This document shows, one piece after another, positions 7,308 to 16,206 of a stretch of 20,265 bases of DNA. Within the stretch, counting starts at the first letter, position 1, and each line of letters begins with the position of its first letter. The notes under the pieces were generated by a model that had not been told where the DNA came from, did not search any database, and worked only from the letters and a program-made list of their open reading frames with translations. Both the position numbers and the translations under genes were made by a program. Source of the stretch: a virus; IMG/VR virus record IMGVR_UViG_3300043788_000144, positions 1 through 20,265 of that record. The stretch is one strand, 5' to 3'.

Positions 7308-7520
7308 GTGTGGCGTAAGTCGTCGTTTTCTAACATGAACGGAAACTGCGTAGAAGTACGCCTAGGACTAGACGGCTCTGCAGACATGCGAGACTCTAAG
7401 GACAATCGTCAGGGCCCCGTCTTAAGGTTCACTCCAGAAGAGTGGCACGCCTTCCTGGACGGCGTCAAGAAGGGCGAATTCGACGATCTCGGAGGGAGTA
7501 AGGTTGTTTCGGATAAGTAA
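7308..7520 (+). CDS. DUF397 domain protein
   Basis: DUF397 proteins are small actinomycete proteins usually encoded next to an XRE-type regulator, with which they are thought to form regulatory or toxin-antitoxin-like pairs. Here the whole 70-residue product is the domain: WRKSSFSNMNGNCVEV, then MRDSKDNRQGPVLRFTPEEW and AFLDGVKKGEF, all hallmark segments. GTG 7308 is preceded by GGAGGTGAT, an excellent ribosome binding site; an earlier in-frame GTG at 7299 lies inside that site. No XRE partner is present in the window. It overlaps queD by 17 bases, so it is the first gene of the deazaguanine operon. A role against a host DUF397/XRE system is possible. Confidence 0.9.
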   Translation: MWRKSSFSNMNGNCVEVRLGLDGSADMRDSKDNRQGPVLRFTPEEWHAFLDGVKKGEFDDLGGSKVVSDK

Positions 7521-7917
7521 GGACTTTGAGTTCAGCGCCGCGCATCACCTGGAGGGACTGCCTCCCGAGCATCAGTGTGCCAGAGTTCACGGACATAACT
7601 ATACCGTCAGACTCATCCTCGAAGCGGATAACCTAAACGGGGTCGGCTTCGTGAGGGACTACGGTGAGCTCGACCAGTTCAGGGACTGGCTGAAGAACGC
7701 GTTTGACCATCGGGACATCAACGATGCAGAGTTCGTAGGCAATCCAACAGCCGAGAACATGGCCCGAGCGATATACGAGGTCACTGCCACGCTGTTCCCC
7801 GAACTCGCAGGCGTCGGAGTATCCGAAACGCACAAGACCTGGGCGTACTTCTATCCAGGCGTAGTATCTATGACCGAGCCTCCCGACGAGGGCCTGGAAC
7901 TGGAAGGACGTAAGTGA
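7504..7917 (+). CDS. queD: QueD, 6-carboxy-5,6,7,8-tetrahydropterin synthase
   Basis: QueD converts dihydroneopterin triphosphate, the FolE product, to 6-carboxy-tetrahydropterin, the QueE substrate. The 137-residue product has the zinc ligands of the PTPS fold: AAHH at 12-15 and HGH at 29-31, with the catalytic cysteine Cys25 four residues before the HGH (CARVHGH). FDHRDIND and SETHKTWAYF match the later conserved Asp/His and Glu positions. The TTG start follows GGAGGGAGTAAGG, and the gene overlaps folE by GTGA. Length is in the usual range. PTPS itself is less likely given the QueE and DpdA homologues. Confidence 0.9.
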   Translation: MFRISKDFEFSAAHHLEGLPPEHQCARVHGHNYTVRLILEADNLNGVGFVRDYGELDQFRDWLKNAFDHRDINDAEFVGNPTAENMARAIYEVTATLFPELAGVGVSETHKTWAYFYPGVVSMTEPPDEGLELEGRK

Positions 7918-8492
7918 GCGTAATAGGTCCGCAGTATCTGGCCAACGCCTCGCCAGAAGATCTCGTCGACGCTCTGCTCCGAAAGACCTGTCCGGATGTC
8001 TACGACCCCGAAGCAGAACACTTCGCCCAGACGCCTAGACGGTTCGTCAAGATGCTCAGGGAGCTTACCGATGGGACCGAGGACTTTGTCTTCACGACCT
8101 TCGCGGCCAATGGCCATGAGATGGTCGTAATCAAAGACATCCGCTTCGTCAGCCTGTGTGCACACCATATCGCCCCGTTCACCGGCGTATGTCATATCGG
8201 TTACATACCGGAGAAGCTCGTGGCCGGTATCTCGAAGTTCGCTCGTCACGTCCGAGCGATGGCGCACACCCTCACCGTCCAGGAAGACTTGACTACCAAC
8301 ATCGCAGACTCCCTCGACGACATTCTAGACCCAAAAGGAGTTGCGGTCGTCATGAGCGCTACGCACTCGTGCATGTCTGTACGGGGAGCGCTAGCTCACG
8401 GCACAACCACGATCACTTCGGCGATGCGTGGCGTCTTCTCGGAGCATGACCGAACCGCAAAGATAGAATTTATGGAACATATCCGTGGTTAG
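7914..8492 (+). CDS. folE: GTP cyclohydrolase I (FolE)
   Basis: FolE opens the guanine ring of GTP to make dihydroneopterin triphosphate, the first step to folate and, here, to 7-deazaguanine. In the 192-residue product the zinc set is intact: Cys82 and His85 in SLCAHHIAPF and Cys153 in THSCMSVRG. GISKFARHVRAMAHTLTVQEDLT is the typical central motif, and LDPKGVAVVMSATH precedes the last cysteine. The length is near the short bacterial forms. It is translationally coupled to queD (GTGA). A phage copy raises precursor supply for DNA modification. Confidence 0.95.
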   Translation: MSVIGPQYLANASPEDLVDALLRKTCPDVYDPEAEHFAQTPRRFVKMLRELTDGTEDFVFTTFAANGHEMVVIKDIRFVSLCAHHIAPFTGVCHIGYIPEKLVAGISKFARHVRAMAHTLTVQEDLTTNIADSLDDILDPKGVAVVMSATHSCMSVRGALAHGTTTITSAMRGVFSEHDRTAKIEFMEHIRG

Positions 8493-10844: not shown

Positions 10845-10983
10845 CGTACCTCAAGAGCTGAAGGATATACTGGACAGCCGTGCGGGCAAGGTCCACTCGG
10901 CCGAAGGTCGGGTAATGCAGACTCTCGCCGAAATACTAACCCGCTTCGAGGAAATGATACGGAGTGGAACCAAGACACCCTAA
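10831..10983 (+). CDS. hypothetical helical protein, 50 aa
   Basis: This frame is open from ATG 10831 to TAA 10981-10983 and overlaps both neighbours (14 bases before, 20 bases after). GGAAGAGG lies about a dozen bases upstream. The product starts LSVDVPQELKDILDSRAGKV and continues with an amphipathic helix (QTLAEILTRFEEMIRSG), a shape seen in small ribbon/helix or dimerising proteins. It fills an otherwise 119-base gap between tightly packed genes, which is the main reason to accept it. Confidence 0.55.
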   Translation: MLSVDVPQELKDILDSRAGKVHSAEGRVMQTLAEILTRFEEMIRSGTKTP

Positions 10984-13651
10984 GGCGAACTGCGAAGCCT
11001 GTCCACTCTTCGACAGAGACTACGCTTACGTCCCTAGCACGGGCCCGAGCCGCTGCAAGATCGCTCTGGTCGGACAGAATCCTGGATCGCAGGAGATCAG
11101 GATAGGCAAGCCGTTCACTGGCCCCAGCGGCAGGCTCCTAGATCAGGTCTTGAAGCATTACAAGCTAGACCGATCTGAGATGCTAGTAACGAATGCTGTC
11201 TCTTGCACGCATCGCCAGGACTCCACGATGAAGCCTCCGGCAGCTGCAGTGGCAGCCTGTCGTCCGAGACTCATGGAAGAACTACACCAGCGTGGAGCCG
11301 AGAAGATCGTCTCGATGGGTAACGTCCCGTCTCAAGGGTTCCTCGGCGTAAGAGATTCGATCACCCGCCTACGAGTAGGCGCTGCCCGCGACCTAGAGAT
11401 AACCGCAGGGCACTTCGCCAAGCTGTACTGTACGTATCACCCAGCTGCATGTCTCCGGGGAGCGCAGTACTTCCCGTCAATGGTCAATGACTTCGGCAAA
11501 CTAGTCAAGCCGCCTCCCCCATGGCAGGAGCCTACGTATGTTGTCTGGGAAGATTCGATCACAGCTATCCGCGGTATCAAGGAAATGCAACGTAGAGGGA
11601 TCAGTCGAATATCTCTCGACATCGAAACATCCGTACCTGCCGATAAAGATACCAGTTTTGACCACCCGTATCGGTACAAGATACTTTGCATTGGCTTGGC
11701 CTATTCACCGACTAAGGCTATTGTCATCGGGAGAGCAGCCTGTCAGGACCCGCTCGTCCTAAAGATGCTGAAACAGTTCCTAGTCGGCAAGACAATCATC
11801 TGCCAAAACGGTAAGTTCGACAAGCAAGGCCAATACGCGCACGGCTGCGACTTCACGTTCACGTCTGACACGATGCTACAGTCGTACGTCATGGATGAGA
11901 GGCCTGGTATTCATGGACTCAAGGTCCAGCTCGAAGAGAAGCTCGGGTATCCGAGATATGCTGACGAGATCACGCAATACGTCGGAAAAGGCAAAGCGAA
12001 GTCGTTCGCGAACATTCCCCTTGATATCCTTTACCGCTACAACGCATACGACACGTGCGGCACTTTCGCTCTGGACGAATACAACATGGAGCTGCTACAC
12101 GGGGATGATTGGGCTGCACCCGTCCGAGATCGGCATGACGGTGAACGTTGGGGACTCGTTCGGCTTCACAGTTTCATGGTCCAAACAGCCAATAACCTCT
12201 CCTACGTGGAGCTCAATGGGTTTCCCGTTGACCTCAAGTACAATGCAGAGCTCACCAGGAAGTACGATGGAGAGCTCTCCCGCCTAGAGCAGGACATGTT
12301 CGACCTGCTGGACGGAGTCAGATTCAATCCCCGGTCCCCGCAACAACTGAAGAAGATCTTCGCCAACATGAACGTCCCGCTTCCTATGGTCCGTAGACCT
12401 AACGGAACGGTATCCGCCTCCACGGCAGCGGACGTATTGAAGGACTTGTACGAGAAGTACAAGTCAATCACTACTAAGGCGATAGGCAGGTCCGATACGC
12501 CTGAAATCGTATACGAGAGTACTGAAGAGGCTTTCCTTCGAGCCCTGCTGGCATATCGTAAGTTCGCCAAGATGAACGGCACATACGTCCGCGGCTTGAA
12601 GAAGCACGTATGGAAGGGCCGAGTCTTCCCGACGATCATGATTCACTCTACCGTATCGGGCAGGACATCACAGAAGAGACCGTCGCTTCAGGTCATTCCT
12701 CACGCCAACGAGATCAAGAGACAGTTCGTTACGTCGGACTACAACAAGTGGCGATACGACTGGGAACCGTACCGCGACTACAGCGTACTGTGTGAATTTG
12801 ACTATAAGCAGATCGAACTACGGGTGCTAACCTGGCTAGCTCAAGAGGAGTACTTCCGTGAGATATTCGCAGACGAGAACCGGGACCTATTCAAAGAACT
12901 TCTTCCAGTTGTCAGACCCGAACGGTCTAAGAAGACTAATCTACACCCCAAGGACAGACGAAATATCGTCAAAGCCTTCGTCTACGGATTGGCTTACGGC
13001 CGAGAGGCAAGCTCCATTGCCGAGGAGTACGGGATACCGGATCAGGATGCTCAGGAAATGTACCGTGACTTTTTCCGGGCTATCCCGAATATTGTCAGGT
13101 TCAGAAATCAGGTCAAGCGAGACGCGGTGTCGCAGAACGACCTCGTCACTCCCTTCGGACGGAGAAGAAGGTTCTGGCTAGTCACTCCAGACAATAAGAA
13201 GGAAGTTGAGAACGAGGCGCTATCATTCTATCCACAGTCCATTGCATCCGATATAGCGATACAGGCATTCAACTGGTTGAGACCGCAACTAAAGGGAATT
13301 GCATACGTACGTAATCTTGTGCACGACGCTATCTTCACGGAGTGCAAGGAAAGTAACCTGGAGAGAGTAGCGGACATAGTCATTTCCACCATGCAGGCGT
13401 CAGCTTACGCCGTCATGGGCGATTACGTCAAGATCGGTGTAGATGCGGAGGTAGGCAGGACATGGGGCGATATGATCAGCCTAGAGAGTTGGCTCGACGG
13501 GAAGAGACCCTACCCGTCGGAAGTGGCCGTGAGACAGACAGCCGTTCTAGTTCCGCACACTACGCCGACGCTCAGTTTGGCAGGCCCGATTGGGTCATGT
13601 GCGGATTTCAATGGGGCCAAGGAGTGCGAGTCCTCGCTAGTAAGATTCTGA
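10964..13651 (+). CDS. family A DNA polymerase with N-terminal family 4 uracil-DNA-glycosylase domain (SPO1-type fusion)
   Basis: The 895-residue replicative polymerase begins with a UDG domain (about 1-180): all four Fe-S cysteines (Cys10, 13, 81, 99), motif GQNPGSQE (37-44) and HPAA at 159. Then comes an intact 3'-5' exonuclease: Exo I Asp219/Glu221 (LDIETS), Exo II Asn282/Asp286, Exo III YNAYD at 359-363. The polymerase domain has motif A with Asp613 (FDYKQIELR), motif B Lys670 to Gly675 (KAFVYG) and motif C VHDA with Asp788; the usual Glu after this Asp is Ala789. About 45 residues after the expected end are unusual. The GTG start overlaps a small gene. The UDG domain may act as a uracil or base sensor, as in SPO1-like phages. 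Confidence 0.92.
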   Translation: MEPRHPKANCEACPLFDRDYAYVPSTGPSRCKIALVGQNPGSQEIRIGKPFTGPSGRLLDQVLKHYKLDRSEMLVTNAVSCTHRQDSTMKPPAAAVAACRPRLMEELHQRGAEKIVSMGNVPSQGFLGVRDSITRLRVGAARDLEITAGHFAKLYCTYHPAACLRGAQYFPSMVNDFGKLVKPPPPWQEPTYVVWEDSITAIRGIKEMQRRGISRISLDIETSVPADKDTSFDHPYRYKILCIGLAYSPTKAIVIGRAACQDPLVLKMLKQFLVGKTIICQNGKFDKQGQYAHGCDFTFTSDTMLQSYVMDERPGIHGLKVQLEEKLGYPRYADEITQYVGKGKAKSFANIPLDILYRYNAYDTCGTFALDEYNMELLHGDDWAAPVRDRHDGERWGLVRLHSFMVQTANNLSYVELNGFPVDLKYNAELTRKYDGELSRLEQDMFDLLDGVRFNPRSPQQLKKIFANMNVPLPMVRRPNGTVSASTAADVLKDLYEKYKSITTKAIGRSDTPEIVYESTEEAFLRALLAYRKFAKMNGTYVRGLKKHVWKGRVFPTIMIHSTVSGRTSQKRPSLQVIPHANEIKRQFVTSDYNKWRYDWEPYRDYSVLCEFDYKQIELRVLTWLAQEEYFREIFADENRDLFKELLPVVRPERSKKTNLHPKDRRNIVKAFVYGLAYGREASSIAEEYGIPDQDAQEMYRDFFRAIPNIVRFRNQVKRDAVSQNDLVTPFGRRRRFWLVTPDNKKEVENEALSFYPQSIASDIAIQAFNWLRPQLKGIAYVRNLVHDAIFTECKESNLERVADIVISTMQASAYAVMGDYVKIGVDAEVGRTWGDMISLESWLDGKRPYPSEVAVRQTAVLVPHTTPTLSLAGPIGSCADFNGAKECESSLVRF

Positions 13652-13842
13652 CACATGCAGAACTACAGTACTTGACCCCCATTGCCGTAATGGCTAGGCG
13701 AAGAGAACTTTCCCTTACGTGCTGGATAGGCGTTGGAGGAAACAACGATACGGTACTCATTGACGCTCCGGACTATCCCTCGGCTATGGAAGCGCTATTC
13801 CGCCAGTGGAGCCCGAACCGTAAGAAGGAGATCGAAGCTTGA
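13597..13842 (+). CDS. hypothetical protein, about 81 aa (start uncertain)
   Basis: The frame is open far into the polymerase gene, but the protein-like part is at the end: QYLTPIAVMARRRELSLTCWIGVGG and IDAPDYPSAMEALFRQWSP. ATG 13597 and GTG 13624 are the candidate starts; neither has a good ribosome binding site, so coupling from the polymerase is likely. No family is recognised. The stop is overlapped by the TTGA start of the next gene. Confidence 0.5.
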   Translation: MCGFQWGQGVRVLASKILTHAELQYLTPIAVMARRRELSLTCWIGVGGNNDTVLIDAPDYPSAMEALFRQWSPNRKKEIEA

Positions 13843-14165
13843 GATCCGTACTGTTCATCGACGGCTATGCAAAAGGCCACGTAATACCCTGTGATGATAA
13901 CGCTCCGGTATGGCGAGTAGCAATCCCTCCCGATCCTCGGATAACCGAATACTACGATCCTAATGAACCTATACCGACGCTCCGAACTGATGATTACTAC
14001 TTCCACATGATAGGGTTCTACGGACTCATCATCCGGATAGCGTCTATCCACATGAACTACGAAAACATAGATCCATACGATATGAGAATAGTCCTAAGTC
14101 GGGAAGCTAGGCAAGCGGCGGTCGAGATGCCGGCAAGGGGAGGATCCGGTCGCAACCCGGTATAG
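13839..14165 (+). CDS. hypothetical protein, 108 aa
   Basis: TTG 13839 overlaps the previous TGA and follows AAGAAGGAG at a good distance. The product begins RSVLFIDGYAKGHVIPCDD and is rich in Y, D and P (EYYDPNEPIP, DDYYFHMIGFYGLIIRIASI), with a short hydrophobic patch around 60-72 that is too polar at its edges to be a sure membrane span. I do not recognise it. The coding end runs into GAGGATC, which pairs with GATCCTC at 14172-14178 in the 61-base gap before the HNH gene. Confidence 0.6.
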   Translation: MRSVLFIDGYAKGHVIPCDDNAPVWRVAIPPDPRITEYYDPNEPIPTLRTDDYYFHMIGFYGLIIRIASIHMNYENIDPYDMRIVLSREARQAAVEMPARGGSGRNPV

Positions 14166-14226
14166 AGGGTCGATCCTCAGGTAAGAGTGGGTCGCCAAAC
14201 TGGCTAGGCCAGGGACAAGGTGTAAA

Positions 14227-14760
14227 GTGGCTTTAAAGCAGAGTGAGGATGATCCCGCCCACCACCCTCTCGAAATTCTAAAAGTCTGCAGCAAGTGCAA
14301 TGAAACAAAACCGGAGAGCGCCTTCTACAACTGCAGGAACAGCCCAGATGGCCTGCAGTACTGGTGCAAGACTTGCATGAAAGCACACAACCAGAACAAA
14401 GAATGGACGGACCAGCGTAAATGGCGAAAAAATAATCCCGATAAGCAAAAAGACGCAGAGAGAGCACACTATACGTTTAACTACGCGCAAGACAAACCGA
14501 AATACGTAGCAGCCAGAGCGCGAAGGAGAGCCGCAGAGAATCAAGCACTGTGTGAGTACCGAGAGTGCAAATCTATAGACAGGCGTACAGTCTGGGAAAG
14601 GGACAAAGGGGTCTGTCAACTGGCTCTTCTTTGCGAAGGCGCATTCGTCCCGTTCGATGCCATGCATATGGACCATATCATACGACTAGCCGACGGGGGT
14701 CTGCACTGTTACCTAAACGTCCAGACTAGTTGCGCGCCGTGCAACAGGTTCAAATCTTGA
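14227..14760 (+). CDS. HNH endonuclease with N-terminal zinc finger (probable free-standing homing endonuclease)
   Basis: HNH enzymes nick or cut DNA; phage copies are often selfish homing genes. The 177-residue product has a zinc finger CSKC-x21-CKTC (about 21-52) followed by a basic helix, a long Arg/Lys-rich linker, and a C-terminal HNH core: WERDKGVCQLALLC, HMDHIIRLADGGLH with the catalytic His, then an Asn (YLNVQTSC) and CAPCNRFKS. The start is GTG 14227. The coding DNA is A-rich with many AAA codons, unlike its neighbours, which points to acquisition. It lies after the polymerase genes, a common homing target area, but no split gene or intron is evident. Confidence 0.85.
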   Translation: MALKQSEDDPAHHPLEILKVCSKCNETKPESAFYNCRNSPDGLQYWCKTCMKAHNQNKEWTDQRKWRKNNPDKQKDAERAHYTFNYAQDKPKYVAARARRRAAENQALCEYRECKSIDRRTVWERDKGVCQLALLCEGAFVPFDAMHMDHIIRLADGGLHCYLNVQTSCAPCNRFKS

Positions 14761-15273: not shown

Positions 15274-15438
15274 ATGACAGTCGAAATTACCTGGACGGAT
15301 CAAGGGCCTTCGCATACATTCGAAGTAGCGAATGCTGGGGTGGACGAGCATCGCCAGATTGTTCTAAGCTGGCATGGATCAAGAACGGACCTCAAGATAC
15401 CACTGGACAACGTTAGATTCTGGACGGTGAGCAAGTGA
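15274..15438 (+). CDS. hypothetical protein, 54 aa
   Basis: ATG 15274 follows AAAGGCGAG. The product reads as a small beta domain: TVEITWTDQGPSHTFEVA, QIVLSWHGSRTDLKIPL and VRFWTVSK. No family is recognised. The stop overlaps the GTG of the next gene (GTGA), and the next product has similar size and beta character, so the two may act together. Confidence 0.6.
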   Translation: MTVEITWTDQGPSHTFEVANAGVDEHRQIVLSWHGSRTDLKIPLDNVRFWTVSK

Positions 15439-15680
15439 CTGAAAAGGCAACAGCCTGCGTGATCGAGATATACCAGACAGAGCCAGAAGAGACCGACGAT
15501 ACGCTAGCAGGTAGCGTCATCATGCCGGACAAAGTCCTCATTAACGGGCACCCTGTACTAACCCAGGGCGGGGTAAGGATCAACGCCATAGAAATACCCG
15601 TAGGAAAGGAACTCGCAAGCGTTACAGTCACGCTACTAGTTCGCCGAATCATAGTCGCGGCTGAGGGGGACATACATTGA
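15435..15680 (+). CDS. hypothetical beta-rich protein, 81 aa
   Basis: GTG 15435 overlaps the previous stop. The product alternates hydrophobic and polar residues in several strands (ATACVIEIYQTEPEE, VLINGHPVLTQGGVRINAIE, ASVTVTLLVRRIIVAAEG), suggesting a small beta sandwich or barrel. No motif or signal is seen. Its end overlaps the TTG start of the RuvC-like gene, so they are coupled. Confidence 0.65.
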   Translation: MTEKATACVIEIYQTEPEETDDTLAGSVIMPDKVLINGHPVLTQGGVRINAIEIPVGKELASVTVTLLVRRIIVAAEGDIH

Positions 15681-16129
15681 GAATCATCTCAATAGTACCC
15701 GGTAAGATAACCGGCTGGGCCGCCTGGGAAGAAGGACTGCCCATCGACCACGGAAGCATGGGCCCGAAAGAGCACCACGGCGAACTGTGGCGCCTGCTAG
15801 TAGGCGAATGGCAGCAGGCAGATACTGTTATCTGCCAGTCGTACACCAGGTCTCTTCGAGATACTGTATCAATCGAATACACGGGAACAATCAAGAGTGC
15901 GGCAGATGTCTTCAATATGAGACTAGTCATGCAAGGAGACCACGTACTAAACAGTATAAGTAACCACAAGCTGAGACGATGGGGGGCGCAGCACACCAGC
16001 TGGTACGTAGATCGCTACCAGGTCGCAGCGGAAGGCCACATACTATTCCATCTTCTCCACAACGTCTACGTGCCTGAGGCGCTTAGGCAGCGTACGATAC
16101 TGACTCTAAGGCCAGTCGCAGAGAATTAA
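15677..16129 (+). CDS. RuvC/RNase H-fold protein with apparently lost catalytic acids
   Basis: RuvC-like phage proteins resolve branched DNA using acidic residues of an RNase H fold. Here the outline is kept: strand one IISIVPGKITGWAAW (normally I-D-P-G-x-x-T-G-W), a later strand ADTVICQSYT (normally V-I-E), a central helix with the pattern of phage RuvC-like proteins, and a C-terminal segment QVAAEGHILFHLL (normally with Asp before the His). In each place the acid is replaced: Val7, Gln54 and the Ala/Glu stretch before the last His. It should therefore bind but not cut, or use a different chemistry. TTG overlaps the previous TGA. It is the last plus-strand gene before the convergent element. 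Confidence 0.6.
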   Translation: MRIISIVPGKITGWAAWEEGLPIDHGSMGPKEHHGELWRLLVGEWQQADTVICQSYTRSLRDTVSIEYTGTIKSAADVFNMRLVMQGDHVLNSISNHKLRRWGAQHTSWYVDRYQVAAEGHILFHLLHNVYVPEALRQRTILTLRPVAEN

Positions 16130-16206
16130 GCCGGAGCCCGGCACAGTGTGAGATCCCACACATCCCGCACTGAAAGAGGGGCGGACGCCTCAGACCGGGC
16201 TCCGGC
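16130..16206. terminator. 77-nt structured element between convergent units, probable bidirectional terminator
   Basis: A perfect 12-bp inverted repeat, GCCGGAGCCCGG (16130-16141) and CCGGGCTCCGGC (16195-16206), starts on the base after one stop and ends six bases before the opposite stop. Inside are GTGTG/CACAC (16146-16150 with 16157-16161), an alternative CAGTG/CACTG (16144-16148 with 16168-16172), and GAGG/CCTC (16176-16179 with 16188-16191). No T-runs flank it. The 7-bp ends resemble an acceptor stem and the length is 77, but there is no T-arm or anticodon arm. Confidence 0.75.

What the first reader, a model, noticed from the sequence alone, without database searches (positions are those of the whole stretch)
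15677..16129. RuvC-like protein with all expected catalytic acids replaced
The RNase H outline is clear in IVPGKITGW, VICQSYT and AAEGHILFHLL, yet Asp, Glu and the last Asp of the active site are Val, Gln and Ala/Glu. A non-cutting branch-binding protein could protect replication forks, regulate packaging or act as a decoy, in company with two beta-rich small proteins coupled upstream.
Basis: partly seen in the sequence, partly recalled or inferred. Interest (0 to 1): 0.65.

Follow-up and report, generated by a model that had tools for sequence, protein, structure and literature searches.

The report
Phage DNA-junction cutter turned non-cutter
A small phage protein still has the fold of an enzyme that cuts crossed DNA strands but has lost every catalytic residue, and it has been kept through long evolution, so it probably does a job that needs no cutting.

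Summary
The 150-aa ORF at 15677-16129 folds confidently as RuvC (AlphaFold pLDDT 91; Z 13.9 to Deinococcus and Thermus RuvC). All four catalytic positions are replaced: D7>V, E54>Q, H114>Y, D117>A (Deinococcus RuvC D7/E67/H139/D142). Of 77 other phage relatives, all keep D7 and E54 and all keep an acid at 114 or 117. Only three loci are dead: the window, a 98% identical sibling, and a diverged (about 39%) ortholog in a 79.6-kb contig that shares D7>V and D117>A but keeps E54. They form one clade (support 100/95, catalytic columns left out), sister to live orthologs at the same gene position. So inactivation happened once, with E54>Q added later in the window lineage. The dead gene is not decaying: window against sibling shows 6 synonymous and 2 non-synonymous changes, and relative to the polymerase it has diverged about as much as live copies. 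No substitute resolvase was found in the 79.6-kb contig. Best reading: a retained, nuclease-dead RuvC-fold protein that most likely binds branched DNA, or has been repurposed. The upstream small genes are swapped out in relatives, so they are not fixed partners. The role itself is inferred.

The parts
15677..16129 (+). RuvC-fold protein without catalytic residues, 150 aa, TTG start overlapping the upstream stop (TTGA); last gene of the rightward cluster
   Evidence: orthologs L002 6001-6453, L094 13356-13799 (dead), L004 9291-9734, L007 5001-5444 (live)
15695..15697 (+). codon 7 GTA (Val) in place of the first catalytic Asp
   Evidence: D in 77/77 live relatives, V in the three dead ones
15836..15838 (+). 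codon 54 CAG (Gln) in place of the catalytic Glu
   Evidence: E kept in the diverged dead ortholog L094
16016..16018 (+). codon 114 TAC (Tyr) in place of catalytic His/Asp
16025..16027 (+). codon 117 GCA (Ala) in place of the last catalytic Asp
15435..15680 (+). 81-aa gene directly upstream, coupled by start/stop overlap; not conserved in relatives
15274..15438 (+). 54-aa gene upstream, overlaps the 81-aa gene by 4 nt; not conserved in relatives
14227..14760 (+). HNH protein (PHROG 'endonuclease VII'-like), the only other junction-nuclease candidate in the window; a clean insertion of about 590 bp absent from the sibling
10964..13651 (+). DNA polymerase A with N-terminal uracil-glycosylase-like domain; used as anchor for synteny and as divergence yardstick

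Best explanation
The gene encodes a RuvC-like phage resolvase ortholog that lost nuclease catalysis once, in the common ancestor of the window phage and the L094 phage, and has since been kept as a functional non-cutting protein. Shown by computation: the RuvC fold, loss of all metal-binding residues, single origin, conserved gene position, and continued constraint. Inferred: it still works through the RuvC body, as a dimer that binds branched or recombining phage DNA without cutting it, shielding junctions or forks from host and phage nucleases or displacing host RuvC. I put about 0.93 on 'dead as a nuclease', 0.9 on 'kept by selection', and about 0.5 on 'branched-DNA binding'; the remainder is mostly a protein-binding or transcription role.
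For: Fold: pLDDT 91.4, RuvC Z 13.9, the same as for the live ortholog (pLDDT 93.5, Z 13.9). Catalytic loss: D7 and E54 in 77/77 live relatives; window V, Q, Y, A at 7, 54, 114, 117. The diverged ortholog L094 shares V7 and A117 and the changed HTxWYxxRxQVAAxxHIL segment. Monophyly 100/95 with catalytic columns removed, sister to live L004/L007 (98/96). Same position after pol, with the same xTGA start overlap, in dead and live phages. Constraint: 6 synonymous against 2 non-synonymous changes between window and L002 (P 0.003-0.008 under neutrality). For pol identity 0.65-0.68, RuvC-like identity is 0.39 in the dead pair and 0.41-0.44 in live or mixed pairs. Catalytic-dead RuvC-family proteins can keep binding junctions: NtMOC1 inactive and ZmMOC1 D115N are solved with Holliday junctions (titles 6lct, 6is8).
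Against: Only two lineages (three contigs) carry the dead form. T11 and the lysine aligned to TthRuvC K111 (junction contacts, PMC3834835) are lost in both. Net charge is 0 and +2, though live members average only +0.4. No DNA binding, dimer or expression has been measured. The selection test rests on 8 changes.
Confidence: 0.5

Rival explanations
1. Exaptation to a non-DNA-junction role: the RuvC body now serves as a protein-binding or transcription factor, as in the mitochondrial elongation factor TEFM and the RNase H domains of Tex/Spt6.
For: TEFM, Tex and Spt6 are among the fold matches (Z 10.0-11.0), and TEFM is a published pseudonuclease dimer clamp (PMC9950373). The two dead lineages share new residues beside the old active site (W109, an extra Y110, Q115, V116, A117, Y56), and the predicted catalytic helix starts about one turn earlier than in the live ortholog.
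Against: RuvC proper scores higher (13.9). There is no added domain such as the helix-hairpin-helix of TEFM. The live relatives match Spt6 just as well, so the match says nothing specific.
Confidence: 0.3
2. A decaying pseudogene: the phage no longer needs a resolvase and the gene is on its way out.
For: Related 77-87-kb phage contigs (L005, L102, L108) have no RuvC-like gene, so the function is dispensable in this group.
Against: An intact ORF survives an estimated 1.7 substitutions per site between dead lineages. dN/dS is low. Divergence relative to polymerase is like that of live copies. Conserved start overlap and position.
Confidence: 0.07
3. A still active nuclease with a shifted active site that uses other acids (E67, E119, D112, D49).
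For: E67 is kept in both dead lineages. Five live relatives show that the helix acid can move from 117 to 114.
Against: E67 is conserved in live members too, so it is not a replacement. E119 is Q in L094. No acid stands at positions 7, 114 or 117 in either dead lineage, and none at 54 in the window. In DrRuvC substitution of these residues abolishes activity (PMC9228767).
Confidence: 0.05
4. The HNH protein at 14227-14760 took over the resolvase job and freed this gene.
For: Best PHROG match is 'endonuclease VII' (E 4e-18), three genes upstream.
Against: It is a clean insertion missing from the sibling that has the same dead RuvC-like gene. No HNH or endonuclease VII hit in L094's 79.6-kb contig. 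Pfam gives HNH only, not Endonuclease_7.
Confidence: 0.04

Closest known systems
Phage RuvC-like resolvases of the PHROG_1981 / actinophage type (for example Curtobacterium phage Nonagon gp54, Micrococcus phage Kurnik)
   Same: Homologous by sequence through the live orthologs L004 and L007 (E 5e-15 to phrog_1981), and the same fold. Nonagon has the gene last before convergent tail genes, as here.
   Different: Those keep D-E-H-D. The window has V-Q-Y-A, and its sequence alone finds no hit in the phage collection.
Bacterial RuvC (D. radiodurans 7w8d, T. thermophilus 4ld0, E. coli 1hjr)
   Same: Same fold over about 127-131 residues, Z 12.6-13.9.
   Different: No catalytic residue left; 13-18% identity; no Pfam RuvC hit.
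Lactococcus phage bIL67 RuvC
   Same: Phage RuvC fold, Z 10.8 (4ktw). Its engineered D8N mutant is nuclease-deficient (PMC3864405), the laboratory analogue of this natural state.
   Different: bIL67 RuvC is active by nature.
TEFM / Tex / Spt6 RNase H-fold pseudonucleases
   Same: RuvC-type fold without catalysis, reused for another task.
   Different: Much larger or multi-domain proteins, no sequence link; analogy only.
TldR, nuclease-dead TnpB-derived phage regulators
   Same: Phage-borne RuvC-fold proteins that lost cutting and serve as RNA-guided regulators (PMC13418256, abstract; detail of the dead RuvC from own knowledge).
   Different: RNA-guided and much larger; unrelated to junction resolvases beyond the fold.

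Membership tests
RuvC-like Holliday junction resolvase (phage type) | RNase H fold with RuvC topology | tested here: met
   pLDDT 91.4; 7w8d and 4ld0 Z 13.9
RuvC-like Holliday junction resolvase (phage type) | sequence homology to accepted members | tested here: met
   38% identity, E 5e-30 to live ortholog L004; nested in the family tree
RuvC-like Holliday junction resolvase (phage type) | catalytic D-E-(D/H)-D metal site | tested here: not met
   V7, Q54, Y114, A117
RuvC-like Holliday junction resolvase (phage type) | junction-contact residues | tested here: inconclusive
   K98 and an aromatic at 56 kept; T11 and the K111-like lysine lost in both dead lineages
RuvC-like Holliday junction resolvase (phage type) | symmetric cleavage of Holliday junctions as a dimer | not testable with these tools
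PHROG_1981 | significant profile match | tested here: inconclusive
   window: no hit; sibling E 0.15; dead ortholog L094 E 2.5e-5; live L004 E 5e-15
Endonuclease VII (for the neighbouring HNH protein) | Endonuclease_7 domain (PF02945) | tested here: inconclusive
   no hit, but no control rang either; HNH PF01844 E 3e-6
TEFM-like pseudonuclease factor | RuvC-fold core without catalysis plus added domain and polymerase binding | tested here: inconclusive
   fold Z 10.8; no added domain in 150 aa; binding not testable

The most novel reading that the evidence does not exclude
A lineage of phages carries a natural pseudo-resolvase: a RuvC-fold protein that lost catalysis once and was then refitted (new W-Y/Q-V-A-A segment, longer helix) as a binding protein that controls branched DNA, recombination or transcription during infection.
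Probability: 0.45. Interest if true: 0.7.

Novelty: new variant of a known kind. Interest (0 to 1): 0.52.

Why it matters
Engineered catalytic mutants of RuvC are standard tools, but in the literature searched here I found no natural phage lineage that keeps a dead resolvase (open-access papers only). If it binds junctions, these phages have replaced cutting by protection or competition, a new way to manage branched DNA. It comes with a ready control: live orthologs at the same gene position in sister phages.

Tried and rejected
tblastn of the window protein in 50,697 phage records: no hit; the link came through synteny and the live ortholog. Pfam and NCBIfam: no hit. PHROG: only a chance-level match. 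Genome contigs of bacteria: no relative. Three more scans of IMG/VR for dead-clade members found only the three known loci. D117>A alone is not a mark of death: five live relatives have A117 with D114 instead. BLASTP, MAFFT and HLLH-anchored alignments differ in the helix register; the MAFFT and BLASTP register was adopted because it keeps A118 and H121, and in neither register does an acid fall at the Asp position. Other resolvases: RusA (controls rang) none; Pfam RuvC (controls rang) none; Endonuclease_7 and phage endonuclease I none, but without a ringing control. Partnership with the upstream small proteins rejected as a fixed feature.

Full report
What was checked. The ORF at 15677-16129 (+, 150 aa, TTG start) is real. 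The window is a 20.3-kb virus record, a fragment. Upstream lie replication and nucleotide genes: a PD-(D/E)XK protein, an AAA protein, GTP cyclohydrolase, QueD and DNA polymerase A with a UDG-like domain. Downstream, genes run the other way. The ORF is the last gene of the rightward cluster.

Finding relatives. The protein alone has no match in phage records, Pfam or NCBIfam, and only a chance-level PHROG match. IMG/VR gave one sibling, L002 (98%). A search with the polymerase gave L004 and L005. Just after its polymerase, L004 carries a 147-aa ORF with the intact motifs IDPG, CESF and HAGDARRH. It is 38% identical to the window protein (E 5e-30) and hits phrog_1981 at 5e-15. L007, 72% identical to L004, is a second live ortholog. 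A four-row alignment then gave 80 loci, and a polymerase alignment gave more.

The catalytic residues. In an alignment of 80 family members, position 7 is D in 77 and V in 3, and position 54 is E in 78 and Q in 2. Position 117 is D in 72 and A in 8; five of those A rows carry D at 114 instead. The family profile aligns to D. radiodurans RuvC (E 4e-5) with E54 on Glu67, H114 on His139 and D117 on Asp142. That enzyme's catalytic residues are Asp7, Glu67, His139 and Asp142, and substitutions abolish activity (PMC9228767). The window has V7, Q54, Y114 and A117. Of 19 other positions conserved in at least 80% of live members it keeps 14. So the loss is focused on the active site and its neighbours (T11, A115, F56>Y).

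A second dead lineage. L094 (79.6-kb contig, polymerase 67% identical to the window's) carries the gene in the same place: pol, a 126-aa gene, a small gene, then the RuvC-like gene, then convergent genes. It has IVPG, CESY and QVAAQRHIL: D7>V and D117>A shared with the window, E54 kept. A tree without the catalytic columns puts the window, its sibling and L094 in one clade (100/95), sister to L004 and L007 (98/96); the dead state needs one change. The dead lineages also share W109, an extra Y110, Q115, V116, Y56 and G87, which neither live sister has.

Is it kept? The window and the sibling differ at 8 bases after the start codon, 6 synonymous and 2 not; with neutral changes the chance of so few amino-acid changes is 0.003-0.008. 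The two dead lineages are an estimated 1.7 changes per site apart and both are intact ORFs. For polymerase identity near 0.66, the RuvC-like proteins are 0.39 identical in the dead pair and 0.41-0.44 in live or mixed pairs. The xTGA start overlap with the preceding gene is kept in window, L002, L094, L004 and L007, although the preceding gene differs. Homology between window and sibling resumes exactly at the start of this gene (15678).

Structure. The window model has pLDDT 91.4 and the live ortholog 93.5. Both match RuvC best, Z 13.9. In the window model the last catalytic helix begins at residue 109, eight residues before position 117; in the live model it begins at 114, four residues before Asp118. 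Confidence is lower there (block mean 79), so this is a hint only.

What replaces the cutting? The window's HNH protein (14227-14760) is a clean insertion missing in the sibling and has no counterpart in L094's contig. RusA and RuvC (with ringing controls) and Endonuclease_7 and phage endonuclease I (without) were not found in the seven contigs searched. Three relatives of 77-87 kb lack the RuvC-like gene altogether. So phages of this group seem able to live without their own resolvase of these kinds. These records are not known to be complete.

How it may work. Shown: RuvC body, no metal site, kept by selection. From the literature: nuclease-dead RuvC-family proteins can still hold junctions (inactive MOC1 forms are solved with Holliday junctions, titles). 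TEFM shows that the same body can become a transcription clamp (PMC9950373). K98 aligns with the region of TthRuvC K122, which is kept, while T11 and the K111-like lysine are lost, so binding may be altered. My favoured mechanism is non-cutting binding of branched phage DNA; the main rival is a protein-binding or transcription role.

Limits. There are three dead contigs from two lineages; no protein has been tested; the collection scans were by short conserved peptides and may miss members; the library searched holds open-access papers only.

Noticed in passing
16130-16206 (and L094 about 13781-13859, L092 near 15973, L004 near 9748, L102 near 15275, L108 near 13530): Strongly folding element between the convergent genes (-47.1 kcal/mol, z -5.7 in the window). 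Relatives have the same loop motif GGGCGGACG inside differing complementary stems, also in phages without the RuvC-like gene; no Rfam match. Possibly a two-way terminator or a structured RNA/DNA site.
   Followed up: partly
14171-14760: HNH gene present as a clean insertion relative to the sibling phage L002/L003: a free-standing mobile endonuclease.
   Followed up: partly
L005 9971-13372: DNA polymerase of the 86.8-kb relative carries an insertion of roughly 270 aa that looks like an intein with an endonuclease-like domain, in the exonuclease region.
   Followed up: no
10964-13651: Family A DNA polymerase fused to an N-terminal uracil-DNA-glycosylase superfamily domain, with GTP cyclohydrolase (7914-8492) and QueD-like (7504-7917) genes nearby: possible deazaguanine DNA modification.
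   Followed up: no
L015, L021, L029, L040, L052: Live-looking RuvC-like relatives in which the helix acid sits at position 114 (DANAA) instead of 117 (HANDA): a swap inside the active site.
   Followed up: no
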